A stretch of 64,000 nucleotides of DNA from Musa acuminata AAA Group (lineage: Eukaryota; Streptophyta; Magnoliopsida; Zingiberales; Musaceae). Both the position numbers and the translations under genes were made by a program. The notes under the pieces were generated by a model. The model saw only the letters and a program-made list of their open reading frames with translations, had not been told where the DNA came from and ran no database searches. The DNA is taken from NCBI RefSeq assembly GCF_036884655.1, contig NC_088347.1, positions 12,830,001 through 12,894,000 on the forward strand, read 5' to 3'. Below are positions 15,878 through 60,605 of this stretch, one piece after another; the stretch's first letter is position 1, and the number at the start of each line of letters is the position of its first letter.

Positions 15878-16494
15878 AGGTTAATTGATCTAATCCATAT
15901 TATTGAGTTAAGTGTGCAGGATTAAATATGATAACCAGAAAACATAAAGCAAGGATACCGGAGTCAAGTTCGATGGACGTTTAAGAGTCCGAAGAATCGT
16001 CGGAGATGCTGCCGGAACCAACCGAGAAGAAATCGGGAACCTGTCGGAATTTTCGGAAGTTCGCCGAAGAGATCGTCGGAGGTTCACGGAGATCACCGAG
16101 AAGGCTCGGCTACTCGTTAAAGTCATCACAAGATCGGGAGCTTGCTGGGAGTCCGTCGGAAGAAGTTCGTCGGAAAGCTCGCCGGAACAAGACTCGACGT
16201 TCGCGGTTGAAAACTTGCTTAGGATGTTTTTAGTTATGTAGCTCACTTGTAATTAGGATTAGGATTAAGAGATAATCCTATATTCTGGTTAGGGGCCAAC
16301 TGGGCCTAAAAGTAGACTTGGTTTGGGCTAAATTTGAAGCCCAACCAGTGAACCGAAGGGTTTGGCGGTGGCACCGCCAGACTGGGCGGTTGCACCGCCC
16401 AGCACCCGAGAGATGGGTGATGACACCACTTGGCTGGGCGGTGGCACCGCTAGTCCACTGTTAGTGTCTGACACTGATAGGCGGTGGCACCGCC
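15841..16494 (+). repeat. 3' LTR of element B, piece 1
   Basis: Starts TGTTGAATCTCGG directly after the PPT. It includes the Sirevirus-like U3 (about 15,900-16,250) and palindromes from about 16,365. It breaks at 16,494 (CCGCC), where element D begins. Confidence 0.88.
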
Positions 16495-23662: not shown

Positions 23663-25156
23663 TGCTAGTCATAAGTGCCCAGCAAGCCAATCACATGAGT
23701 GATGGCACGTGTGACTTGATACAGAATCTTTTTGCTTATTATATTTTGGCGTATATCACTTTATAACTATTGCATAGATGCATATATATTGTGATGTCCT
23801 TGGATTTGTGCAATGGGAATCGGATCGTGATGAGATCACGATAATGAGATCGATTCACCTTTAAACACATATCCTAAATAATCCCGGTCATAGGTTACTC
23901 GAGAGGGATATCGTGATAACCGGATAGACTGGTGTGCTGTATACCCGTCCATATGATGGATGCAGCTGGTCTCATAGCTGCTCGTGTAGGGACACTAGGG
24001 ATACAGTACAGGTGCTCATTGGAGAATGAGTTCACTGATTGATCCGCTTACGGAATGCTGGATAGTTGATGATGCCTTATTGTCAGACAACGATTCCGTA
24101 GTCCTAGTGGTGTATCTGGTTCTTAGACTTGAGACACCAAGGATGTCCTATATGAGTGCTCCACTCTTTGATACCAGACTTATAGGTTTGGCTGTTCCCA
24201 GATCTAGTACAGCTGGTCATTGGGAGTGGTAGTCGACCTTACGAGGGCTATTGAGTGTCGATAGAGGATCATCCACTCTCGGTATCATGAGAGGAATATC
24301 CCATGTGTTCTTGCTCAGACAAATCCCTGGCCAGGGTCATTCGGGTTGAGAGAGAAAGAGTTCTCCGGGAGAATCCGATTAGAGCGAGACTCGAGTAGAT
24401 ACCGTATGGGTCTGACAGCACCATGCTCGATATACGGTCTCTGGGATATTAGATGGATGAGGGACTATAGGTACATGGTAACTGAGGACAGACAGGTCCA
24501 ATGGATTGGATTCCCCTGTATCGTCTGGGGACTACGGCGTAGTGGCCTAGTACTTCCGTAGTCGATGAGTCGAGTGAATTATTACAGAGATAATAATTCA
24601 CTGAGTTAGAAGGAGTTCTGACAGGTATGACTCACGGCCAGCTCGATATTGGGCCTAGAGGGTCACACACATATGGTAGGCATTGCGATGAGTAGAGGTT
24701 CGGATATGAGATATCCGACGGAGCCCTTGTCTTATTGGATGCAGATCCAATACCCACTAGGGAAAGGACCCATTAGGGTTTTGACACGGGATCTCTATAA
24801 ATAGGAGGGATTCACAGCCTCATAGGCTAGAGTCTTTGCTTGCCCTTCCTATTCTCCTCTCCCTCTCCACCTCAGAGTAGGCCTGGAGTTTTGAGGAGCG
24901 TCGTCGCAACCCTGCTGTGTGGATCACCGCTAGAGAGGAGGACGCTTGACCTCCTTCACCCTCTCCTAAGGATCTGCAAGGAAACAGGGATATACGATCT
25001 CACTAGGTAACACAATCTCTATACGCAGTTTTGTGTTTTTGCGGATTTTGCGCACCAATCTTCGCACGACGATGAACATCTTTTTGGGAATCGGGGAGTT
25101 TTGTTTTCTTGTTCTTCCGCTGCGCATATGATGTCGCCCCCTATGATTTCCCAACA
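23663..25156 (+). repeat. 5' LTR of element C2
   Basis: TGCTAGTCATAAG to TTTCCCAACA, 1494 bp. Short ORFs inside (e.g. 24,026-24,232) recur in every copy of this LTR and are not supported as genes. Confidence 0.95.
24796..24803 (+). promoter_or_regulatory. TATA box of C2 5' LTR
   Basis: TATAAATA in ATCTCTATAAATAGGAGGG. Repeated in the 3' LTR at 31,957-31,964, in C1 at 9275-9282 and in G at 46,485-46,492. Confidence 0.7.
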
Positions 25157-25157
25157 G

Positions 25158-25169
25158 TGGTATCAGAGC
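25158..25169 (+). other. Primer binding site, element C2 (tRNA-iMet)
   Basis: TGGTATCAGAGC, 1 nt after the LTR; the match continues as CAGGTTG. Confidence 0.93.
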
Positions 25170-25261
25170 CAGGTTGTTCGTGCGAATGATTGGTTTTGAA
25201 CTGCATGTGTTGTGTTTAGGAAGAATTTTGACGTCAAAATCGTTGACGCAAAAGCGAGAAA

Positions 25262-25282
25262 GGGCAGCAACAGTTGCTGCCC
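25262..25282 (+). promoter_or_regulatory. 21-nt palindrome downstream of the C2 primer site
   Basis: GGGCAGCAAC and GTTGCTGCCC around one A, 93 nt after the primer site. G has GGGCAGCAA and TTGCTGCCC at the same spacing (46,950-46,970). Candidate RNA dimerisation element. Confidence 0.55.
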
Positions 25283-26480
25283 TCGATCTGCGTGCGTGCA
25301 GCGCAGCCGAAGGCCGGCACCGCAGGGGCTGCGTCTGCAGCAGCCGGCCGGCGGTCTGCTTGCAGCAGGCTTGCGGCCGGCGGGGCTGGCAGCCCGCGGG
25401 TAGAGGCGCCGCGGGGCAGCAGCGCGGGCTGAGGCACCGCAGGGCAGCGGCGCTTGTGGCCGCTGCTCCCACGGGCAAAAACCCCGCAGGGGCGGCCGCC
25501 AGCGAGGCAGCACCGCCTGCGGGCGCTGCCTCGCCTGCAGAACTGCCCGCGGAGGCGGCGACGCCCGCGGGGGCGCCCACCTGCAGCGGCAGCGCTGCCA
25601 GCGGGCGTGCCTCTCGCAGGCGAGGGCAGCGCCCCGCCCCTCGCCGCACAGGCCGCCGCCAGCAGGGTGGCGGCGGCAACGGCAGCAGCAAAGGGCAGTA
25701 GGAAATTAGGGTTTTCTGGGCAAAAGACAGTTTTACCCCTGTGAATTTGAGAAATTTCAGTTTTTGTCTTTTGTCCAAATTATGAAAATACCCTTAGGAA
25801 CTGAGAAATTCCCTATATATCCCTGATTTCAGAAAATATTAATTAATTAAAAGGTTTAGTTGATTATTATTTTTATTATTATCTAGTAGTCCTACATGAT
25901 GATGATAATTTATACATGTGATGTATGATGTGTGGACGGATGATCATGGACCGTGTGATGTGTGTACTTGTGATTATTATTATTGAGGTCTGCGAACCTC
26001 TATTATATTTCTCGTTTATTGTCGGGCCTGCGTGCCTATGATTAAGTTGTAATCACATGAGGAGGCGCAGCGGGAGCGTGGATGCCATAGCGGGACCCAC
26101 GAGACGGACGATCGTGATGCATGGAGATGCATCAAGATGTCGACGGAACCGACGAGGACGAGATGGACGATCACAAGGCATGGAGATGCACCGTTGCACA
26201 CATAGATCTTGATGTGAGTGATTAGGCCTACTGGCTCGGGCCTAATCATATTAGGTTGTGGTCCATGATCATCTGGTGTGATTGCTTATACACATACTAG
26301 ATATGTATATATATTTGCATGCGATATAGATATATATTAAATATGCATATGTGTGACATGTCATATTAGGAGACCAAATCATAGAAACATCTCTCGATAA
26401 TATTAAGTCGGTAAACGTGAGGCAATTAGATTGACCCACGTGGCCTTCCATCGTTATGAGTAGGAACCGAATCCCGGTGT

Positions 26481-26792
26481 AGGTTGAGTTGGTCGAGTCC
26501 CTCGAGACTCACCTATATCGTGATTCGCTATCTTGCTTACTACATAGAGATGTCACCGGTGACCTGAGGGCATGATATGCTTGGTCGAGTCCCTCGAGGG
26601 TATATCATCAAATCAGACTCATCTTGTAACGAAGGTGTTGACTTAACCGAGCATCATGGTTGGTCGAGTCCCTCGAGGCCATGGTGATTCGGAGGCCGAA
26701 CAGGACGGGAATCACAAGGAGTTGTGATCGGCAAGAGTTGTCTACCTTTTAGGCTTAGTGTGATTGGTCGAGTCCCTCGAGGTTACACTAAG
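26481..26792 (+). promoter_or_regulatory. Four-hairpin array upstream of C2 gag
   Basis: TTGGTCGAGTCCCTCGAG occurs identically at 26,489, 26,581, 26,660 and 26,764. Each has a TCGAG/CTCGA stem with a TCC loop, extended by a different outer stem: AGGTTGAGT/ACTCACCT, TGATAT/ATATCA, CATCATGG/CCATGGTG, CTTAGTGTGA/TTACACTAAG. Between them lie a 12-bp palindrome GTCACCGGTGAC (26,552-26,563) and ATCACAA-GGAG-TTGTGAT (26,711-26,728). Possible packaging or translation-control structure. Confidence 0.65.
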
Positions 26793-26977
26793 ACGCTGAT
26801 TGGATCCTGATCCCCACTAGAAGTCTGCCGGAGACTTCCGTTTCACGTGCTGAGGGTGTCGCGTGACTCGTTAGTAAAATAGTGGGAGCATATTAAGATA
26901 GAAGTCCATATCTTGATAGTTTATTTCTTGCAAAATCTGCATGTTATTCATTTTTGCTACATCTTTATTTTCAGAAA

Positions 26978-29900
26978 ATGTCGCTTTCAAATCCCTTACG
27001 TGGCATACTTGATGTCAACCGCCTCACTGGTCCAAATTATACGGATTGGCTCCGTAACTTGAGAATTGTTCTCACAGCGGAGAAAATCGTGTACGTCCTT
27101 GATACAGTGATGCCTACGCCCGAAGAAGGGGCAAGCGAGGATGAGATCGCTCGCTACGTGAAGTACATTGATGACTCCACTCTTGCTCAGTGCTATATGT
27201 TGGGCTCTATGACTCCAGAGTTACAGAGACAACATGAAAAGATGGATGCCAGATCCATTCTCCTACATGTCCGTAAATTGTTTGAGGAACAGGGAAGGAC
27301 TCAACGATATGAGATATCCAAGAGCCTTTTCCGCGCTAGGATGACTGAGGGGACACCGGTTCAGAACCATGTCCTAAAGATGATTGAGTGGATAGAGAAA
27401 CTCACAGGTCTAGGAATGGTCCTAGAGGATAACTTGTGTGTGGACATTGTGCTTCAGTCCCTACCAGATTCCTTTTCACAGTTCATAATGAATTTTAATA
27501 TGAACAAGCTTGAGGTGACTCTCCCAGAGCTCTTCAATATGTTGAGGGAGGCAGAGAGTACTATTAAGAAAGAGAAGCCAGTTCTCTACACTGGTGAGAC
27601 CAGAAAGAAAAGGAAAGCAGAAAGGTCCCTTAAGAAGGGAAAGGGCAAGGGCAAACAAGGTAAAGCAAAGGTTGCTAAGAAAGACCCAACAAAGGACAAA
27701 GGCCAGTGCTTCCACTGTGGTAAAGATGGGCACTGGAAGAGAAACTGCAAAGAGTACCTTGCAGAAAGGGTGAAACAAAAGCTTGATGAAGCTTCAGGTA
27801 CATTCATGATCAGTCTCCATTTGTCAGACTCTTATGATAACACATGGGTATTAGATACCGGTAGTGCTTATCATATATGCAATTCGTTGCAGGTTCTGGC
27901 AAGGCCTAGGAGACTAGAGAGAGGCGAGATGGACCTCAAGATGGGTAATGGAGCAAAAGTTGATGTATTAGCTGTTGGCGAGGTCGCCCTACATCTGCCT
28001 AGTGGAGCTTTTATTGCATTAGATGCATGTTATTTTGTTCCTTCTGTTATCAAAAACATTATCTCCATTTCATGTTTAACAGTTAGTGGATATAAATTTG
28101 TTTTTGAGAACAATGGTTGTTCGATATTATTAGATGATAAGATCATCACGAAAGGAACATTGCATAATGGTTTATTTATGTTAGACACCACTCCACATAT
28201 CATGAATATAAATGTGTCCAAAAGGAAACGAGATGAGTTGAACAGTGCATACCTGTGGCATTGTAGGCTAGGTCACATCCATGAAAGAAGGATTCAAAAG
28301 TTGCTAAATGATGGATATCTAGATCCATTCGACTATGTGTCATATGCAACTTGTGAGCCTTGCATTCGTGGAAAACTGACCAACTCTCCATTTAATGGAA
28401 CTGGAGAGAGAGCCACTGAGTTGTTGGAACTCATACATAGTGATGTATGTGGACCCATGTCAACTCATGCCATTGGAGGTTACTCCTACTTCATTACATT
28501 TACTGATGATTTCTCAAGGTATGGATATGTGTACTTAATGAAGTACAAGTCCGAGGCCTTTGAGAAATTCAGAGAGTATAAGAATGAGGTGGAGAACCAG
28601 ACTGGAAAGAGTATCAAAACTCTTCGATCAGATCGAGGAGGTGAGTACTTAAGTACAGAGTTTACTCACTTCCTCAAGGACCATGGGATATTATCCCAAT
28701 GGACACCTCCTTATACACCTCAGCTCAATGGTGTCTCTGAAAGGAGAAATCGTACATTATTAGATATGGTACGGTCCATGATGAGTTTCGCTGACCTACC
28801 CATCTCATTCTGGGGATATGCCCTAGAAACCGCAGCTTACCTTCTGAACAGAGTTCCAACTAAGTCGGTGGTGTCTACACCATATGAGATATGGAAAGGG
28901 AAGAAGCCTGATCTTAAGGTTGTTAAGATTTGGGGCTGCTCTGCCCATGTTAAAAGACACAACCCCGATAAGTTAGAATCAAGGACAGGGCGATGTAAAT
29001 TTGTGGGATACCCCAAGGAAACTTGTGGGTATTACTTCTATCATCTCGAGGACCAAAAGGTCTTTGTAGCTAAGAGAGCAGTGTTCCTTGAGAAGGAACA
29101 CATTCTTGGTGGAGACAGTGGGAGAATGATAGAGTTGAGCGAAGTTGGAGAACCAAGCTCAAGCACCACTCTACAGCCCGAGTCTGTTCAGGTATCTAAT
29201 ACACAAGTTTCAACTTTACGCAGAGGATGTAGAGGATATTGATCCTCAGACCTACGAGGAGGCTATTATGAGTATAGACTCCGGGAAGTGGAAAGAAGCC
29301 ATGAATTCTGAGATGGATTCTATGTACTCCAATAAGGTTTGGAACCTAGTTGATGCACCCGAAGGTATTGTACCCATCGGTTGCAAGTGGATCTTTAAGA
29401 AAAAGATCGGAGTAGATGGAAAGGTAGAGACCTATAAAGCAAGGCTAGTGGCTAAGGGGTATCGTCAAAGGCAAGGTGTTGACTACGACGAAACTTTCTC
29501 ACCCGTAGCAATGCTAAAATCCATCAGAATTCTATTGGCTATTGCAGCACACTATGATTATGAGATCTGGCAGATGGATGTGAAAACCACATTCCTCAAC
29601 GGGAACCAGGAGGAGGAGGTGTATATGATGCAACCTGAGGGATTCGTGTCCAAGAACTGCCCAGATAAGGTGTGTAGGTTGCTTAGATCCATTTATGGAC
29701 TAAAGCAAGCTTCCCGAAGTTGGAACATAAGATTTGATGAGGCAATCAGATCTTATGACTTCGTTAAGAACGAAGATGAGCCTTGTGTATACAGAAAGGT
29801 AAGTGGGAGCGCTATTAGCTTTTTGGTGTTATATGTGGATGACATCCTCATCATTGGGAATGACATAGGAATGCTATCCACAATAAAGGCTTGGTTATCT

Positions 29901-30809
29901 AGACACTTCTCCATGAAGGACTTAGGAGAAGCATCTTATATCTTGGGGATTAGAATCTATAGAGATAGATCCAAAAGGATGCTTGGCTTGTCCCAGTCCA
30001 GGTACATAGAAACTATTGTCAAAAGGTTTGGCATGGAAAATTCCAAGAGAGGTCTCATACCGATGAGACATGGGATATCGCTTTCTACGAGTATGTCCCC
30101 AAAAGACTCCAGAAGAAAGGGCGAACATGGATATGATACCTTATGCCTCAGCAATAGGGTCTATCATGTATGCCATGCTATGTACTAGGCCTGATATAGC
30201 GCATGCTCTGAGTGTCACGAGCAGGTATCAGGCGGATCCAGGCTTGGAGCACTGGAAAGCAGTAAAGTGTATCCTTAAGTACTTGAGAAGGACTAAGGAT
30301 CTTTTACTAGTATATGGAGGTAATAGCCTTAAGGTTGAAGGCTACACTGACTCAAGTTTTCAGTCTGATGTCGATGATAGCAAGTCGAATTCAAGGTATG
30401 TGTACACCTTGAATGGAGGAGCAGTGTGCTGGAAGAGTTCCAGCAAGATACCACTGCTGACTCGACCACAGAGGTGGAGTACATTGCTGCATAAGATGCA
30501 GCAAAGGAGGGAGTTTGGGTGAAGAAGTTCATCACAGATTTGGGAGTCGATACAGATATCGACAAGTCGACTTCCTTATATTGCGACAACTATGGGGCGA
30601 TTACTCAAATAAGGGAACCGGGTCTCATCAGAAGTGTTCTGAGGAGGTTCCACCTTATCAGAGAGATCGTAGCCCGAGGAGATGTAGCAGTGGAAAGAGT
30701 TCCATCCGAAGATATCATTGCAGATCCACTGACAAAGCCGTTGTCTCAGATTGTCTTTGAGCGTCACAGGGGTCTGATGGCGATCAGACACATAGGTGAT
30801 TGGCTTTAG
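26978..30809 (+). pseudogene. Element C2 gag-pol polyprotein, frameshifted
   Basis: The start chosen is the ATG at 26,978 ([16 protein letters not shown]), the family start, rather than the upstream in-frame ATG. Gag has a [14 protein letters not shown] knuckle at residues 244-257. Protease DTGSAYHIC is at residue 293. Integrase has [12 protein letters not shown] with [25 protein letters not shown] and NGVSERRNR. The first frame ends at 29,242 because about 53 nt present in G are missing near 29,217. RT then continues in another frame (WQMDVKTTFLNG, LYVDDILI at about 29,831). An extra A (about 30,101-30,104), a lost base (about 30,440) and a TAA (30,492-30,494) damage the RT/RNase H part. The C-terminus IGDWL stops at 30,809. 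Confidence 0.92.
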
Positions 30810-30855
30810 GTCAAGTGGGAGATTGCTAGTCATAAGTGCCCAGCAAGCCAATCAC
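30796..30855 (+). promoter_or_regulatory. Inverted repeat around the C2 PPT/3' LTR junction
   Basis: GTGATTGGCTT (30,796-30,806, overlapping the last pol codons) and AAGCCAATCAC (30,845-30,855, inside the LTR) are perfectly complementary, with the PPT (AAGTGGGAGAT) and LTR start in the loop. Confidence 0.6.
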
Positions 30856-32317
30856 ATGAGTGATGGCACGTGTGACTTGATACAGAATCTTTTTGCTTAT
30901 TATATTTTGGCGTATATCACTTTATAACTATTGCATAGATGCATATATATTGTGATGTCCTTGGATTTGTGCAATGGGAATCGGATCGTGATGAGATCAC
31001 GATAATGAGATCGATTCACCTTTAAACACATATCCTAAATAATCCCGGTCATAGGTTACTCGAGAGGGACATCGTGATAACCGGATAGACTGGTGTGCTG
31101 TATACCCGTCCATATGATGGATGCAGCTGGTCTCATAGCTGCTCGTGTAGGGACACTAGGGATACAGTACAGGTGCTCATTGGAGAATGAGTTCACTGAT
31201 TGATCCGCTTACGGAATGCTGGATGGTTGATGATGCCTTATTGTCAGACAACGATTCCGTAGTCCTAGTGGTGTATCTGGTTCTTAGACTTGAGACACCA
31301 AGGATGTCCTGTATGAGTGCTCCACTCTTTGATACCAGACTTATAGGTTTGGCTGTTCCCAGATCTAGTACAGCTGGTCATTGGGAGTGGTAGTCGACCT
31401 TACGAGGGCTATTGAGTGTCGATAGAGGATCATCCACTCTCGGTATCATGAGAGGAATATCCCATGTGTTCTTGCTCAGACAAATCCCTGGCCAGGGTCA
31501 TTCGGGTTGAGAGAGAAAGAGTTCTCCGGGAGAATCCGATTAGAGCGAGACTCGAGTAGAAACCGTATGGGTCTGACAGCACCATGCTCGATATACGGTC
31601 TCTGGGATATTAGATGGATGAGGGACTATAGGTACATGGTAACTGAGGACAGACAGGTCCAATGGATTGGATTCCCCTGTATCGTCTGGGGACTACGGCG
31701 TAGTGGCCTAGTACTTCCGTAGTCGATGAGTCGAGTGAATTATTACAGAGATAATAATTCACTGAGTTAGAAGGAGTTCTGACAGGTATGACTCACGGCC
31801 AGCTCGATATTGGGCCTAGAGGGTCACACACATATGGTAGGCATTGCGATGAGTAGAGGTTCGGATATGAGATATCCGACGGAGCCCTTGTCTTATTGGA
31901 TGCAGATCCAATACCCACTAGGGAAAGAACCCATTAGGGTTTTGACACGGGATCTCTATAAATAGGAGGGATTCACAGCCTCATAGGCTAGAGTCTTTGC
32001 TTGCCCTTCCTATTCTCCTCTCCCTCTCCACCTCAGAGTAGGCCTGGAGTTTTGAGGAGCGTCGTCGCAACCCTACTGTGTGGATCACCGCTAGAGAGGA
32101 GGACGCTTGACCTCCTTCACCCTCTCCTAAGGATCTGCAAGGAAACAGGGATATATGATCTCCCTAGGTAACACAATCTCTATACGCAGTTTTGTGTTTT
32201 TGCGGATTTTGCGCACCAATCTTCGCACGACGATGAACATCTTTTTGGGAATCGGGGAGTTTTGTTTTCTTGTTCTTCCGCTGCGCATATGATGTCGCCC
32301 CCTATGATTTCCCAACA
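30824..32317 (+). repeat. 3' LTR of element C2
   Basis: 1494 bp, the same length as the 5' copy, with 8 substitutions seen. Followed by the AATTT duplication. Confidence 0.95.
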
Positions 32318-42863: not shown

Positions 42864-44484
42864 TGTTAGGATCGGAGCGGCACTAAGAGGGGGGGGTGAA
42901 TTAGTGCAGCGGATTAAAACTTTGGTTTCGGAAAAATCTTTCGCACGATAACAAACAATATCAATGAGAACCGATTTGGAAGCTTGAAAACTTAGAGACG
43001 TATGGAAGCGTAATGACTAAGGAAAAAAATTTGCAGTATGTAAATGACAAGATTAGGATGCAAACCAAATAACACAGTAGTTTTAAAGTGGTTCGGTCAA
43101 AATGACCTACATCCACTTGCGAAGCCTTCTTCGAGGAGGCTCCCAACTTCCACTAGCAAATCTCTTGTAGGGGAAGGACTAATACCCCTCTTACAACCTT
43201 TTACAAGTGGTTCACACTCTTACAAATTTTTGAATAGAAAGAAGGAGGTGAACACTCAAAGCAATTGAAGATAAAAACTTGCTAAAGACTTTGCTAAGAC
43301 TTTTGGCTCACTCTCTTGCTTCTCAAAGGTTGTAATCTCAGCTGAGATTTGAGGGGTATTTATAGGCCTCAAGAGGATTCAAATTTGGGCTCCAAATTTG
43401 AATTCTCGTGGAGTTCCCGATGCTGGCGGTGCCACCGCCTGTAACTGTCAAATGTTGACAGTGCTGGGCGGTGCCACCGCCCAGCCCAAGCGGTGCTACC
43501 GCCCAGCTCTCGGGCACTAGGCGGTGCCACCGCCCAGCCCAGGCGGTGCTACCGCCTACAGTGTTTTCAGCCCAACTACAGTGTTTTCAGCCCACTAGTT
43601 GGGCTTCAATCTTGCCCTAAACTAGTCCGAACTTGGGCCCAATTGGCTCCTACTTGGGTTATAGGATTAACACCTAATCCTAACCCTAATTAACATGCTA
43701 ACTACGAATTTAAAGACTTTTTCTAAGCTATTACAAGGTCCGTAAGTCAAGACTTCTTCCGGCGAGCTTCCGGCGAACTTCCGACGGTCTTCCGATAAAC
43801 TCTCGGAAACCATTCTGCGGACTCCTGGCAAGCTCCTAGACTTCACGATTTGATCTTGGCGAGTTCCAACGAGCTTCTTCGGTAAGCTCCGATCTTTCTC
43901 GGTGAGCTCCGCGAACTTCCAACGAACCTTCCGGCGAGTTTCTGAAAAACCCTTCGGCAAGCTCCCTACTCATTCTCGGCTAGTTCCGGCAGCATTCCTG
44001 ACGAACCTTCGGACTTCTGTCGAACTCTCGAACTCCCAATGAATCCTTCGTGCTTGACTCCAGCACTTTGTTTCGCTTTATGTCTTCATCGTTATCGTAG
44101 TTAATCCTGCACACACAATCCAAAACTCTACTCCGATCTAGACAATTATTACAACGTAAATTGACATTTTGTTGCCCGGCATGTCATTGGTTGGCACTTC
44201 GTCCGATTCTTCGGCGCATCGTCCTCTCTTGCGGCTTGTTGCCCAATCGGCGGTTGACCTCCGCAACGCCAATATCCTTGGCGCAATTCAGCTCTCCTTG
44301 GCCTGATGCCCGACGTTCGAAGCCTTCTGCCGTCCAATATCCTGACGTGATCTCCTCCGGCGCAACGTCAATTCCTCCTGCGTTAACTGTCTAATCCTGA
44401 TCGAGTAGACCTGCATTACTCAAAATACAGTTAAACATCTAAACACAATCAATTAGTTTCATCATCAAAATCTGAGATTCAACA
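42864..44484 (-). repeat. 5' LTR of element F (1621 bp)
   Basis: Palindrome array at about 43,425-43,555, arranged differently from the 3' LTR: one unit lost and one gained. Elsewhere the two LTRs are nearly alike. Confidence 0.92.
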
Positions 44485-46843: not shown

Positions 46844-48700
46844 TGGTATCAGAGCTAGGTTGTTCATGCAAAAAATTGGTTTTGAATTGCATGTGTTGTG
46901 TTTTAGAAATAATTTTGACGTCAAAATCGTTGATGCAAAAGGTGAGAGAGGGCAGCAATTGTTGCTGCCCTCATAAGTTGGCCAAAGGCTACTTGTAGTA
47001 GGCCATCTACGTGCAGAGGCTGTAAACAGCCGGTGGGCGACGGTCGTCCGCCTACAAGTAGGCTACACGCAGGCAAGCCACCTACATATGGGCAATGCGC
47101 TTGTGCGCAAGGGTGGTGACTATGGGCGTTAGGCCCGTAGGCGAGCCCCCTTGTGCGTGGCGCTCACCCATAACGGTGAAACCCACATGGGGAAACCACC
47201 GCCCGTGGGCACCCCGCACACGAGCTGCTTGCAGGGACGACACCCGCAAGGGCGCCTTCCTACATGGGTGCCAGCCCAAGGTGTGACGTTGCCCGTGGGC
47301 ACACTTGCCCGCAAGGGCACCGGCACCCGCAAGCACACCGCCCACAGGCATGAGTCGACGACAATTACAACTCAATAGGGGAGAAGGAGAAGGGATTAGG
47401 ATTTTTGGACAAATGATTATTTTGCCCCTCAGAATTTTAGAAAATCTAAGTTCTATCCTATTTATCTGAATTACTAAAATACCCTTCAAAATTCAAGAAA
47501 TTCTCTATATATCTTCAATTTTAGAAAATATTAGTTAATTAAGATGCTTAAATAATTAATTAATATTATTATTATCTAGTAGTCCCACATGATGATGATA
47601 TGTACATGTGATATATGATGTGGATGGATGATCATGGACCGTGTGATGTGTGTGTACATATGATTATGATTATTATTATTGGAGCCTACGAGCCTCCAAT
47701 TTATTTCTTATTTATTATCAGGCCTACATACCTATGATTAAGTTGTAATTACACGAGGAGGCACTATGAGAGCGTGGAGGCGATAGCGGGACCCATGAGG
47801 CCAAGACGGACGATTGCGACGTATGGAGATGCGTTGAGATGCCGATGGAACCGATGAGGACGAGATAGACGATCACAGGGCATGGAGATGCGTCGTTGCA
47901 CACATAGATCTTGATGTGAGTGATTAGGCCTACTAGCTTAGGCTTGATCACATTAGGGTGTGATCCATGATCATCTGGTGTGATTATTCATGTGATATAT
48001 GATTACTTGTACACCTACTAGATATGCATATATATTTACATGTGATGTAGATATATATTAAATATGTATGTATGACACATCATATTAGGAGACCAAATCA
48101 AAAATCTCCTCTCTCAATAATATTAAGTCAGTAAACGTGAGGCAATTAGATTAATCCACATGGTCTTCTATCATTATAGGCAAGGACCAATTCTCGATGT
48201 AGGTTGAATTGGTCAAGTCACTCGAGGCTCACTTATATCACGATTCACTATCTTACTTATGACATAGAGATATCACTAGTGACACGAGGACATGGTATGC
48301 TTTATCGAGTCACTCGAGGGTATATTAACGAATCATACTCATCTTATAAATATGGTGATGAATTAACCGAACACCATGGTTGGTCGAGTCACTCGATGCC
48401 ATGGTGGTTTAGAGGCTGAATGGGACAGAAATTATAAGGAATTTGTGATTGGTAAGAGTTGCCTACCTTTACGGGCATAGCGTAATTGTTGGAGTCACTC
48501 GAGGTTACGTTAAGATGCCGAATAGATCCTGATCCCCATTAGAGATCTATCGAGGGTCTCTGATTCATATACTGGAGGGAGTTGTGTGATTCATGAGAAA
48601 ATAGTGGGAGTAGACTAAGATAAAAAGTTCTTATCTTAATTATTTATTTTTGTGAAATATACATGTTATTTATTTTTGCTACATCTTTATTTTCAAAAAA
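46844..48700 (+). other. Leader of element G with primer site and hairpins
   Basis: Primer site TGGTATCAGAGC at 46,845-46,856, palindrome at 46,950-46,970, GC-richer stretch to about 47,380, then hairpins at 48,201-48,234, 48,293-48,327, 48,372-48,406 and 48,476-48,514, matching those of C2 with compensating changes. Confidence 0.75.
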
Positions 48701-52906: not shown

Positions 52907-54485
52907 CTTCGAATGTTGAAAACCGAACTCGGAAGATAACTTGAAATCTCGTTCACATTCATATATAAAGTGAAATCAGTAGGCAAGTAAAGATTCAGTT
53001 TGCAGTAAGGTAAATAGTAACAATAGAAATGCAAACCAGATTTTAGAGTGGTTCGATCGTCATGACCTACATCCACTTCATCGATTCCTCTTCCGTCGAG
53101 GCCACCGGCATCCACTATTGATCTTCCTTTAATAGGCGAAGATCAACCTCCTTCTTACACCCCTCTTCTCCTTTTCACTAGTTTAGGAGATAACCTTTAT
53201 AAGCACACACACTCCTCTCTAAATAAAATTCTAAACTTAGAATTTAGAGGAGGGGATTCACTTATGATTGCAATAGCGTTTTCTCACTTTTAATCTCTTT
53301 GTGCTTGTGTATATTAACCAGGGATGAGAGGGGTATTTATAGGCCTCAAGTTGATTCGAGCTTGGAGCCTAAAAACATCTCATCCCAGGTTTCCTGGGTA
53401 CAAGCGGTACCATCGCTTGTGCTAGGTGGTACCACCGCCAGTGTTAGTCTGACACTAACACTGGACTAGGCAGTACCACCGCCTAACAACCTACCACTAG
53501 GTGGTACCACCACCCAGACTGGTGGTACCACCGCTTGGCACCCTGCTAGGGGCAGTACCACCGCCCAGACTGGTGGTACCACCGCTTGGCACCCTGCTAG
53601 GGGTACCATCGCCTGACATATCTTAGAGACTGTGCCACGATGGTGCACTTCTTGGGACATTGTTCGGACCACTAATTGGGCCCAACACAATCCTTACATG
53701 GGCCCAACTGGCCCCTAATTGGGTTGGCCCAAATCCAAACCCAATTACGTGCTAACTATGAAATCTAAGACATTTACTAAGCTAAACAAGTCCCTATGTC
53801 TTGGTTTCTTCCGGTGAGCTTCCGACGATCTTCAAACGAACATCCGACGAACTCTCGGGCAATGTTCCAACGGACTCCCAATAAGCTCCTAGACTTCACA
53901 ATGATCTTTTTGGCGAGTTCCAATGAGCTTCTTTAGTAAGCTCCTAGACTTCTCGACTGGTTCCTACAGAACTTTCGATGAACGTTTAGACTTCTAACGA
54001 ACTCTCAAACTCCTAACGAAATCACGTTCTTGACTCCGGGACTTCATTTTGCTTTATGCCTTGCTATCGTAGTTAATCATGCACATGTAAAAACACACAT
54101 CGATCTAGACAATTAATACTAAGCAAGAATCATGTTGTTCGGCATGTCATTGGTCCCACGACGCTTCGTCCGATTCTTCGGCACATCATCCTCTTTTACG
54201 GCCTATTGCCCAATCGATCAGTTGACTGCACAACTCCGATATCCTTGGCGTAATATCCGCTCTTCTTGGCCCGATGCCCGAATCCATGGCTCGAAGCCTT
54301 CTGTCGATACATCGACTGATCCTCTAGCTCAACGTCCATCTTCTGATATGTTTTCATCCTGCACAACATGATTCTTCCTGCTTTAATTATCTTATCCTGA
54401 TCGAAGCATCCTACATCACTCAAAACACAGATTAAATCATAAACACTTATCAATTGGTTTCATCATCAAAATCCGAGATTCAACA
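52907..54485 (-). repeat. Element I LTR (E-type), truncated
   Basis: Begins inside U5 (CTTCGAATGTTG) right after H, so H probably inserted into it. Palindromes 53,400-53,620, end ATTCAACA. Right flank GATTT lies in the 3' LTR of G. No internal region of this copy is recognisable. Confidence 0.82.
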
Positions 54486-55300: not shown

Positions 55301-57221
55301 TGTTAGGAACAAGTCGGCAGCACTAAGGGGGGGGGCGAGGGGGAATTAGTGCAGGGGGAAAATCTACGTCGGTTCTGAAAAATACTTCGTACGATAAAAA
55401 TTGATCTATAAAGATTCTTGACTTGAAAGCATGTTCGTAAACGTATTGAAAGCAGTAAGCAAGTAAAGTGGTTTGCAGTTAAAGTAAATTGCTCAAAAGA
55501 AATATAAATCATATTTTTATAGTGGTTCGGTCGTCGTGACTTACATCTACTCCATTGATTCATCTTCCATCAAGGCCACCAGTAACCACTATCGGTCTTC
55601 TTTCAATAGGCAAAGACCAACCACCTTTTACACCTCTTTCTCCTTTTACCAGATTTAGGAGATAACCCTTATACCCCGACTTACTCCCCTCTCAAACTAT
55701 TCTAACACTTAGAACTTTGAGAGGAGTTTCACACACAATTACAATAGAGTTTTCGTTTCCTTTTTGCTCTCAGTTATGTGTAAGTTAACCAGGGATGAGA
55801 GAGGTATTTATAGACCTCAAGTTGATTCAAACTTGGAGCCTAAAAAGGTCTCATCCCGGGTTTCCCGGGTCCTGGTGGTACCACCGCCTGTGTTGGGCGG
55901 TACCACCGCCTATAGCATTAATACTAGGCGGTACCACCACCCAGTCTAGCGGTACCATCACTTGGAAGACTGTCTCTTAGCGGTACCACCGCCCTGACAT
56001 AGTCTTTGAGATTGTGCCATGACGATGCTACCTATTAGGTTACTATTTGGCCCTTTCATTGGGCCAAACACAGTCCATACATGGGCTCAACTGGCCCCTA
56101 ATTGGATTGACCCAATTCTAATCCCAATTATATGCTAACTATGAAATCTAAGACCTTTACTAAGCTAAATAAGTCCATAAGTATAGGTTTCTTCCAACGA
56201 GCTTCCGGCAATCTTCCGGCAAACTTTCGACGATCTCTCGACAATGTTCTAGTGGACTCTCGGCAAGCTCCTGGACTTCACGATGATCTTCTTGACGAGT
56301 TCTGACAAGCTTCTTTGGCAAGCTCCTGTACTTCTTGTCAATTCCGGTAGAACTTCCGATGAACGTCCGAACTTCCAATAAACTCTCAAACTCCCAACGA
56401 AATCATGTTCTTGACTCCGGGACTTTATTTTTCTTTATGCCTTACTATCATTGTTAATTATGCACAAATAAAATCTACTTCGATCTAGACAATTATTACT
56501 AAGCCAATCAAAGTTGTCCGGCATGTCATTTGTTTATCGACGCTTCGTCCGATTCTTCGGTGCATCATCCTCTCTTGCGGCCTATTGCCCAATCGACTAG
56601 TTGACCTCCGCAACTTTAATTTCCTTGGTGTAATATCCGCTCCTCTTGGCTCGATGCCCCATTGCTCGAAGCCTTCTGTTGATACGTCAATTGATCCTTC
56701 GACGCGACGTCCAATCTTCTAACATGTTTTTCTCCGGCCCAACATGATTCTTCCTACTTTAATTGTCTCTCCCTAATCGAAGCATCCTACGTCGCTTAAA
56801 ACATATATCAAATCATAAACATTATCAATTGGTTTCATCATCAAAATCCGAGATTCAATAATCTCCCCCTTTTTTATGATGACAACCAATTGATGACGGA
56901 GTTTAAACAAACTCCCCCTATCAATATGTCATATTGATAGAACTCTTGGATTCAAAAATCTAAGCAACATGTTATCATAAACTTATACATAACATCATCA
57001 TACTTCTCCCCCTTTGTCATCAACAAAAAGGAGAAATTCAATTGTCAAGTTTTATCATCATTATAATTTGTAAGCTAGCAAATTTAGCAAGTGTTACATC
57101 ATATTAGAACATGCAAGTTATATAGTTTTAAATATGCAAGGTAGTAAGATAGCATGTTCTACAATATACAAGCTAGCAAAATTTATTTCATCATTTTAGA
57201 AAGTGTAAGCTAGCAATATTT
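55301..57221 (-). mobile_element. Element L: E-type element, only the 3' end visible
   Basis: 3' LTR 55,301-56,860 (1560 bp; palindromes about 55,870-56,000), a PPT and 361 nt of internal sequence similar to E and F, including hairpin 57,002-57,037, before M interrupts it. Confidence 0.85.
56824..56894 (-). promoter_or_regulatory. Stem-loop straddling the PPT/3' LTR junction, element L
   Basis: 56,824-56,846 pairs with 56,871-56,894. Arms carry GGT and ACC where D/F have AGT and ACT. E has the same GGT/ACC pair at 33,271-33,293 and 33,317-33,340. Confidence 0.6.
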
Positions 57222-58835: not shown

Positions 58836-59030
58836 GAGGTGCAACCGCCCCAGCCAGGAGGTGCAACCGCCTGGGCTGTGGGGTTGGGAGGTGCAACCGC
58901 CCCATCCAGGAGGTGCAACCGCCTGGGCTGTGGGGTTGGGAGGTGCAACCGCCCCAGCCAGGAGGTGCAACCGCCTGGGCTGTGGGGTTGAGAGGTGCAA
59001 CCGCCCCAGCCAAGAGGTTGCACCGCCAGA
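58836..59030 (+). repeat. 52-bp tandem repeat in N U3
   Basis: Three full units (starts 58,836, 58,888, 58,940) plus a partial one from 58,992. Each has two GAGGTGCAACCGCC motifs separated by CCAGCCAG and a CTGTGGGGTT spacer. Confidence 0.85.
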
Positions 59031-59390
59031 GCTCAAGTTCCGAGCTCTGCCAGGCTATGCAACCACCGAGCTCAGTCTTCGAGCTCTGGCAGAGAGGTGC
59101 ATCAGCCTGAGCTAAGTCTCGAGCTCTGCCAGGTGATGGATTCACCAAGCTCAGTCTTCGAGCTCTGGCAGAGAGGTGCATCAGCCTGAGCTCAGTTTGG
59201 AGCTCTCCCAGGTGATGCAACCACCGAGCTCAGATTTCGAGCTCTGCCAGGTGATGCAACCACCAAGCTCAGTCTTCGAGCTCTGCCAGGTGATGCAACC
59301 ATCGAGCTCAGTCTTCGAGCTCTGGCAGAGAAGAGCAATCGGCTGAGCTCAGTCTTCGAGCTCTACCAGGCGGTGCCACCTCTCCAGTTG
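59029..59390 (+). repeat. 40-bp degenerate tandem repeat in N U3
   Basis: About nine units built on AGCTCAGTCTTCGAGCTCTG followed by a GGTGATGCAACCACC-like part. The motif includes the palindrome GAGCTC. Confidence 0.75.
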
Positions 59391-59474
59391 AGAGGTGCAA
59401 CCGCCTGATCCCAGAATTCTGGGATTTGATCGATTTGATCGTTTTGAGCTCGAATTTTGAATTGGGTTGGGGCC

Positions 59475-59482: not shown

Positions 59483-60197
59483 CCCCACCCATTCAGCACT
59501 GAAAAGATACAGACCAATACCGAAATCTTGATCTTTTCTGTGATTCTAAGAGCTCAAAAGTGTTATAAAGCCTTTAAGTCTCCTCCTTCTGTTCTTCAAG
59601 TTTTCAATTGTAAAGTGAGGAGAGAAAGGTCTGTAAAGGTTGTCTCCTAAGCCTGTCAAAAGGAGAAGAAATTGTAAGAGGGAAGTTTGGCCTTCGCCCA
59701 TTGAAGGAAGGCACCTAGTTGACGTCGGCAACCTCATCGGTGGAGGAAGCCAAAAGTGGAGTAGGTCAAGGCTGACCGAACCACTCTGAATCTCTGGTTT
59801 GCGTTTATTTTCGAGCACTTTATCATTACTGCAAACCTCCCTCATCACTACTGCTCTCTGCGCTTTCACGAACAAATTCTAAGTGCTGTTCTTCCAAATC
59901 TGCATTCAGACGTAAACTCGTGTTTTCATACAGTACAGTTTACGTTTACGTTTGATTCTGCAGAACTGTTTTTCGTGCTTTTACGAACGAGCCGTTTTTG
60001 CAGTTTACGCTTACATTTTAATCCTATTAATAACTGCAATCTGTCCTCTGTGATTTTACGAACGAGTTTCAACATTTAGACGCAAAACTGCATTCAGACG
60101 TAAATCGGCTTTCCTCGCTCAATCGTCAGATTTCAGTTCACGTTTACATCTTGATTTCAACTGCATACTGCCTTCTGCGAGTATACAAACGAGTTTC

Positions 60198-60480
60198 AAC
60201 GTTTAGACGTAAATCTGCGTTTAGACGTAAAACTACGTTTAGACGTAAATCTGCGTTTAGACGTAAAACTGCGTTTAGACGTAAAACTGCGTTTAGACGT
60301 AAAACTGCGTTTAGACGTAAATCTACGTTTAGACGTAAATCTGCGTTTAGACGTAAATCTGCATTTAGACGTAAATCTGAGTTTAGACGCAAAACTGCGC
60401 TTAGACGCAAAACTGCGCTTAGACGCAAAACTGCGCTTAAACGCAATCTGCGCTTAGACACAAACTGCACCTAGATACAA
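60198..60480 (+). repeat. 18-bp minisatellite in N R/U5
   Basis: About 15 units of CTGCGTTTAGACGTAAAA, degrading at the 3' side. Open on both strands because the period is a multiple of three (FRRKTA and LNAVLR repeats). A has only scattered single units near 5400-5600. Confidence 0.88.
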
Positions 60481-60605
60481 ACTGCGAATTTGCTTTTGGA
60501 TCATAATAGTTTTTGAACGAACGCAGCTTTTGGTTTTTAAATTAATATAAGATTTCCGCTGCACTAATTCACCCCCCCCCTCTTAGTGCTCTTGATCCTA
60601 ACAAT

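What the first reader, a model, noticed from the sequence alone, without database searches (positions are those of the whole stretch)
26481..26792. Array of four hairpins with one identical apex and different, covarying stems in the C2 leader
The 18-mer TTGGTCGAGTCCCTCGAG appears exactly four times, 79-104 nt apart. Each copy is flanked by its own extra complementary arms, so this is not simple tandem duplication. The diverged element G keeps all four positions (48,201-48,514) with a shifted loop (TCA for TCC) and compensated stems: the hairpin 4 core is TGTGA/TTACA in C2 and CGTAA/TTACG in G; hairpin 3 has a wobble in C2 and a perfect CACCATGG/CCATGGTG in G. The 12-bp palindrome GTCACCGGTGAC becomes ATCACTAGTGAC. 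A repeated identical apex suggests a protein-binding site such as a Gag packaging array.
Basis: partly seen in the sequence, partly recalled or inferred. Interest (0 to 1): 0.78.

Follow-up and report, generated by a model that had tools for sequence, protein, structure and literature searches.

The report
Four-hairpin RNA array in retrotransposon leader
A very abundant plant jumping gene carries, just before its first protein gene, four RNA hairpins that share one identical tip on four different stems; the tips changed together when the family split, as expected if one protein grips all four, though that protein is not yet identified.

Summary
C2 is a young Ty1/copia element whose 1,821-nt leader carries TTGGTCGAGTCCCTCGAG four times, each as the tip of a different stem: 5-bp stem, UCC triloop, bulged GG.

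C2 versus G alone shows no covariation: 65 of 73 pairs kept, null 63.7, p 0.26; G is decayed. So I sampled the window's own 1.53-Gb genome: 23,611 exact apexes, 68 usable arrays of 76 fetched.

They form two subfamilies, one with four UCC loops, one with four UCA. Of 17 usable arrays fetched for a single A-loop hit, 9 have four A loops, 8 have one, none two or three; the 20 chosen for several hits all have four. No other apex site differs between subfamilies (0 of 68); lower stems differ at 14 of 94. At well-supported sites 72 of 73 pairs survive 12 changes (null 67.6, p 0.0003), but only one change is two-sided. A domain next to gag covaries more clearly.

Best reading: sense-strand RNA hairpins presenting one repeated binding site. 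Gag packaging is the likeliest role, but nothing here tests Gag.

The parts
23663..25156 (+). 5' LTR of C2 (TG...CA)
   Evidence: 99.465% identical to the 3' LTR over 1495 aligned bases; ends read
25158..25169 (+). primer binding site TGGTATCAGAGC (complement of initiator Met tRNA; recalled)
   Evidence: sequence
25157..26977 (+). untranslated leader, 1,821 nt with 37 upstream ATGs
26475..26520 (+). hairpin H1; apex 26489-26506, GG bulge 26491-26492, loop 26498-26500
   Evidence: MFE fold; pairing probabilities; least conserved of the four
26552..26563 (+). 12-nt palindrome GTCACCGGTGAC, possible dimer contact; weak
   Evidence: 359 of 5000 shuffles have one; 4 in the leader
26572..26608 (+). 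hairpin H2; apex 26581-26598
   Evidence: (0/2000)
26647..26692 (+). hairpin H3; apex 26660-26677
   Evidence: (0/2000)
26754..26792 (+). hairpin H4; apex 26764-26781; one two-sided change between subfamilies at 26759/26787
   Evidence: (7/2000)
26813..26886 (+). domain D3: CCCACTA...TAGTGGG closing stem with two inner hairpins, no shared apex
   Evidence: 4 two-sided changes between subfamilies vs null 0.90, p 0.001; 24 of 24 pairs kept; two-sequence test
26978..29242 (+). gag to integrase reading frame (Retrotran_gag_2, CCHC zinc knuckle at 21.0 bits vs cut-off 20.8, integrase)
   Evidence: Pfam; ORF list
29145..30188 (+). reverse transcriptase reading frame, in another frame
   Evidence: Pfam RVT_2
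30824..32317 (+). 3' LTR of C2
48193..48519 (+). homologous array in decayed copy G (UCA loops)
   Evidence: among the A-loop rows

Best explanation
The leader RNA of this copia family folds into an array of four hairpins that hold up the same small recognition element: five base pairs UCGAG/CUCGA, a three-base loop UCC or UCA, and a two-base GG bulge on the 5' side. The lower stems are supports free to change sequence as long as they pair. One partner binds all four apexes, so the four sites are kept identical and changed together. The likeliest partner is the element's own Gag (its zinc-knuckle part). Clustering Gag on four sites next to gag would mark the full-length RNA for packaging, and might also hold back translation. 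Shown: four predicted hairpins, identical apexes, sense-strand bias, pairing kept between subfamilies, shared four-fold loop change. Inferred: a trans-acting partner. Guessed from analogy: that it is Gag, and packaging.
For: Four exact apexes on unrelated stems. In 2-kb context the C2 upper stems pair at probability 0.79-1.0, with the GG bulge and the loop unpaired at 0.83-1.0. Family-wide: 23,611 exact apexes in the genome, reversed-pattern controls 0 and 2. Bimodal loops: of 17 usable arrays fetched for one listed A hit, 9 have four A loops, 8 have one, none two or three; the 20 chosen for two or more hits all have four. The C clade has support 1.0 in a tree built without the loop columns. 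Apex otherwise unchanged between subfamilies (0/68) while lower stems change (14/94), Fisher 0.0004; at strict sites 72 of 73 pairs survive 12 changes, p 0.0003. Lower stems hold 355 G.U to 8 A.C cells (C rows) and 334 to 35 (A rows); up to 136 and 124 of these G.U cells are the fixed U.G pair below the bulge. Upper stems hold 13 to 11 and 32 to 30. This points to the sense RNA. The encoded protein has a Gag domain and a CCHC knuckle, the latter just above its cut-off. All 8 arrays checked, of thousands, sit between leader and gag.
Against: Only one two-sided change in the array (null 0.32, p 0.29); most kept changes pass through G.U. No hairpin alone reaches p 0.05. The C2/G pair and the per-copy test show no excess of two-sided changes (2 vs null 5.3), and among the 22 young rows kept pairs are not in excess either (155 of 500 shuffles reach them). 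H1 keeps 18 of 20 pairs by majority. Arrays were sampled through an exact apex, which favours apex conservation (the commonest letters hold with exact cells removed). No binding, expression or probing data. Nothing points to Gag rather than a host protein. No second family was examined.
Confidence: 0.45

Rival explanations
1. Host-factor array: the four apexes bind a host RNA-binding protein, for instance for export or stability of unspliced RNA, as constitutive transport elements do with repeated internal loops (recalled).
For: Repeated identical site and four-fold change also fit a host partner; plant copia RNA can be spliced (BARE, PMC3735527 passages).
Against: A host protein is shared by both subfamilies, so a coordinated loop change is less expected (inference); splicing of this element was not tested.
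Confidence: 0.17
2. Translation control: the structures let ribosomes reach gag past a leader with 37 upstream ATGs (internal entry or shunting).
For: 37 uATGs in 1,821 nt; seven lie after 26400. D3 sits directly before gag and covaries.
Against: Does not explain four identical apexes; splicing could remove the leader; no translation data.
Confidence: 0.13
3. RNA dimer or self-contact: the near self-complementary apexes and the palindrome pair two genome RNAs or neighbouring hairpins.
For: UCGAG...CUCGA can pair between molecules; palindrome 26552-26563; palindromes were suggested to mediate Ty1 dimers (PMC4974528 passages).
Against: The loops UCC and UCA are not self-complementary; the palindrome is not clearly beyond chance.
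Confidence: 0.08
4. Repeat homogenisation without function: the apexes are a sprinkled or converted repeat, made identical by template switching or gene conversion.
For: Sequence homogenisation can also change four copies together; three CACC arrays (L115, L169, L173) look like intermediates or chance decay.
Against: Flanks of neighbouring copies match at only 4-10 of 20 bases, so conversion tracts would have to stop at the apex each time; pairing of the lower stems is kept.
Confidence: 0.1
5. DNA-level binding site: the 18-bp repeat is a transcription-factor site inside the transcribed leader.
For: Repeated near-palindromic 18-mer.
Against: Does not explain the matching outer arms or the G.U over A.C excess.
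Confidence: 0.04

Closest known systems
Retroviral packaging signals (psi of HIV, MLV, MMTV, RSV)
   Same: structured leader next to gag, several hairpins, unpaired purines bound by Gag (MMTV purine loop and PBS: PMC8096270 passages)
   Different: here four hairpins share one identical 18-nt apex; retroviral psi hairpins mostly differ from each other (recalled). MLV's paired GACG loops are the nearest case I recall; a term search of one review did not find them
Ty1 and Ty3 leader RNA signals
   Same: LTR retrotransposon RNA, Gag contacts near the 5' end, palindromes
   Different: Ty1 uses a pseudoknot and palindromes; Gag sites there were described as not precisely defined (PMC4974528 passages); no repeated apex in the passages seen
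BARE dimerization and packaging signals (barley copia)
   Same: plant copia leader; signals said to be conserved in the gag-less BARE2 (PMC3735527 passages)
   Different: the main text has 0 occurrences of hairpin or stem-loop
Dispersed packaging-signal hairpins of MS2-type phages
   Same: stem-loops in the genome contacting the coat protein (PMC4836477, search listing and start of abstract only); a common motif in variable stems (recalled)
   Different: dispersed and degenerate there (recalled); clustered and identical here; different protein fold expected

Membership tests
Ty1/copia LTR retrotransposon | LTRs, Met-tRNA primer site, integrase before reverse transcriptase | tested here: met
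Gag packaging signal (psi) | specific binding by the element's own Gag | not testable with these tools
   no binding data
Gag packaging signal (psi) | needed for RNA to enter particles | not testable with these tools
   no packaging data
Gag packaging signal (psi) | located in the leader next to gag | tested here: met
   C2 itself and 8 of 8 other arrays checked
Gag packaging signal (psi) | kept in non-autonomous derivatives that lack gag | not tested
   no such copies were sought
Conserved RNA structure | base pairs kept through sequence change | tested here: met
   between subfamilies: array 72/73 pairs at strict sites, p 0.0003; D3 24/24, p 0.0025. Not met by C2 vs G alone
Conserved RNA structure | excess of two-sided compensatory changes in the array | tested here: not met
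   1 vs null 0.32, p 0.29; D3 meets it with 4 vs 0.90, p 0.001
Known Rfam family | match above gathering score | tested here: not met
   four matches at E up to 1 in 25157-27200, all below gathering, none on the array

The most novel reading that the evidence does not exclude
The apex array is a multivalent recognition code that differs between subfamilies: the loop base (C or A) in all four hairpins is matched to the subfamily's own Gag, so that each lineage marks its own RNA, and the switch from one code to the other left intermediate arrays in the genome.
Probability: 0.22. Interest if true: 0.82.

Novelty: new variant of a known kind. Interest (0 to 1): 0.6.

Why it matters
Packaging signals of plant LTR retrotransposons, which fill large parts of plant genomes, are poorly defined. 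A family with thousands of copies, a compact repeated apex and two natural loop versions gives a ready comparison: if Gag binds the apex, specificity, site number and co-evolution can be measured directly. If instead a host protein binds it, it reveals a host control point on a very abundant element.

Tried and rejected
Chance: rejected for the apexes and stems. Coding repeat: spacings 92, 79 and 104 are not multiples of three. Minus-strand or DNA cruciform: G.U greatly exceeds A.C in the lower stems. Known RNA family: none. Relatives in viral contigs: none by gag; three contigs with one 18-mer each. Prokaryote contigs: 66 stretches with one hit each, none with two; my rough estimate for 17 fixed letters in 257 billion bases is about 30, so I take these for chance. 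C2/G covariation: tested and not significant. Plain folding scan: the array is not an outlier. Per-copy pair test on 30 arrays: weak excess of kept pairs (10 of 500 shuffles reach it), no excess of two-sided changes. The palindrome as dimer site: too common. Other families of the same genome: the planned protein search did not complete, so whether other copia families have arrays is unknown. Rows dropped: 7 of 36; 8 of 76 (truncated arrays). In one search, 4 rows (L116, L158, L166, L172) fall in neither loop group; one search also leaves out L121.

Full report
What the element is. C2 is a Ty1/copia LTR retrotransposon. Its LTRs (23663-25156 and 30824-32317) are 99.465% identical over 1495 aligned bases, so it is young. 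The primer site TGGTATCAGAGC follows the 5' LTR. The gag-to-integrase frame starts at 26978 and the RT frame is separate. Named protein matches among the 120 listed of 199 are nearly all from plants, among them Ensete ventricosum (76% over 65% of the query) and Musa troglodytarum (84% over 24%); the best match, 100% identical, has no name.

The observation. The 18-mer is present exactly four times in C2 and with 2-3 mismatches at four homologous places in G. The four C2 hairpins fold identically at the top: lower stem, GG bulge on the 5' side, UCGAG/CUCGA, UCC loop. In a 2-kb context H1, H2 and H4 have upper-stem probabilities of 0.94 or more and H3 about 0.8. Each left arm pairs best with its own right arm in C2; 0 of 2000 shuffles match the summed energy. 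The sense strand folds more stably than the antisense in 8 of 8 hairpins. G keeps H3 and most of H4; H1 and H2 are lost there.

First test of covariation: negative. Between C2 and G, 65 of 73 pairs are kept against a null of 63.7 (p 0.26), with one two-sided change against 0.84. G is decayed: C-to-T and G-to-A differences are 20-22% against 7% for the reverse, and its zinc-knuckle segment has a stop. The array is also not more conserved than its flanks between the two (81% against 87% upstream and 85% in gag). A two-sequence consensus-fold scan of 91 windows (at least one without a defined z) gave its lowest printed z, -5.28, at 26622-26740, and marked 26820-26937 as rich in two-sided changes (7 vs 2.6; 0 of 100 shuffles). 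Tested singly against 2000 shuffles, H2 and H3 are beyond all, H4 beyond all but 7, H1 is not conserved (312).

Family sample. In the own genome, TTGGTCGAGTCNCTCGAG occurs 11,517 + 12,094 times (reversed-pattern control 0 + 2), and the A-loop version 137 + 157 times. Four per array would mean about 5,900 arrays, a rough figure that leaves out decayed apexes. I fetched 36 loci from the first list and 40 from the A-loop list. Of the 40, 20 were chosen because two or more A hits lay together, 20 because one did. 68 of 76 gave usable arrays. With C2 and G there are 35 C-loop rows, 31 A-loop rows and 4 others.

Concerted loops. The 31 A rows were defined by at least three A loops, yet 124 of 124 loop sites are A; one of them (H1 of L143) lies in a stretch that no longer resembles the apex. 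In the 35 C rows 130 of 140 are C, 6 A, 4 T. Of the 37 usable arrays fetched for an A hit, 29 have four A loops and 8 have one; none has two or three. All 20 multi-hit choices are among the 29; of the 17 usable single-hit choices, 9 have four and 8 have one. A tree built without the loop columns separates the C clade (support 1.0; 34 C rows and three of the mixed rows); apart from the truncated arrays L121 and L116 the other side is all A rows. So all four loops differ across one split. If they were independent, a C-to-A difference at four sites would have a chance of about 8e-7, times five for the choice of column. Three older C-clade arrays (L115, L169, L173) have CACC; they may be intermediates or decay.

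Second test of covariation: positive in part. On single copies the test stays weak (array 2120 of 2188 cells paired, null 2111; two-sided 2, null 5.3; the 22 young rows alone show nothing). Comparing subfamily-typical letters removes private decay. At strict sites (70% or more in both groups; 31 A and 34 C rows) the array has 12 differences in 73 pairs and 72 pairs remain (null 67.6, p 0.0003); with simple majority, 14 differences and 71 pairs (null 67.0, p 0.003). Only one change is two-sided (p 0.29), and no hairpin alone reaches p 0.05. D3 (26813-26886) has 10 differences in 24 pairs, all kept (p 0.0025), with four two-sided changes (null 0.90, p 0.001). Apart from the loop base, 0 of 68 apex sites differ, against 14 of 94 lower-stem and 10 of 159 spacer sites. 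The sampling favours exact apexes, but with exact cells removed the commonest letter still equals the apex at 72 of 72 positions in each group.

Strand. Counting pairs by geometry, lower stems hold 355 G.U against 8 A.C cells in C rows and 334 against 35 in A rows; up to 136 and 124 of the G.U cells are the fixed U.G pair below the bulge. Upper stems hold 13:11 and 32:30, the balance expected from decay of dead copies. Cells count related copies, so these are not independent events, but the contrast points to selection on the sense RNA.

Reading. Identical apexes on changing, still paired stems, switched together, are best explained by one partner that reads all four. Gag is the likeliest partner by position and by its CCHC knuckle (21.0 bits, cut-off 20.8); exposed guanines are a common target of retroviral nucleocapsid (recalled). 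This step is inference. Host-factor binding, translation control, dimer contacts and homogenisation remain open.

Literature. Searches (12 listed of 80), 51, 84 and 115 of the held library listed no title describing a repeated-apex hairpin array in a plant copia leader; the library lacks most subscription journals. Passages were seen from PMC3735527, PMC4974528, PMC8096270 and PMC8002223 (not relevant); a term search of PMC5035971 found nothing; PMC4836477 was seen as a listing only.

Noticed in passing
26813-26886: Domain D3 directly before gag: closing stem CCCACTA/TAGTGGG with two inner hairpins; the clearest two-sided covariation found in the leader.
   Followed up: yes
26218-26249: Strong conserved hairpin GATTAGGCC...GGCCTAATC upstream of the array (z -7.2 in the C2/G test, no two-sided change).
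   Followed up: partly
25280-25700: GC-rich leader stretch; in 8 copies the leader upstream of the array is 87-90% like C2 while the arrays are 97-99%.
   Followed up: partly
16364-16493, 43425-43533, 53425-53585, 55870-56000: Another repeat family holds clusters of short palindromes (GGCGGTGGCACCGC, GCGGTACCACCGC) with differing flanks.
   Followed up: no
L115, L169, L173: Three older C-clade arrays carry the A loop only in hairpin 2 (CACC), possible intermediates of the loop switch.
   Followed up: no
30363-30562: Strong local folding on both strands between the RT frame and the 3' LTR (z to -5.7).
   Followed up: no
60142-60482 and 58837-59400: An 18-nt tandem array and a cluster of repeats with spacings such as 39, 52 and 79 nt.
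   Followed up: no
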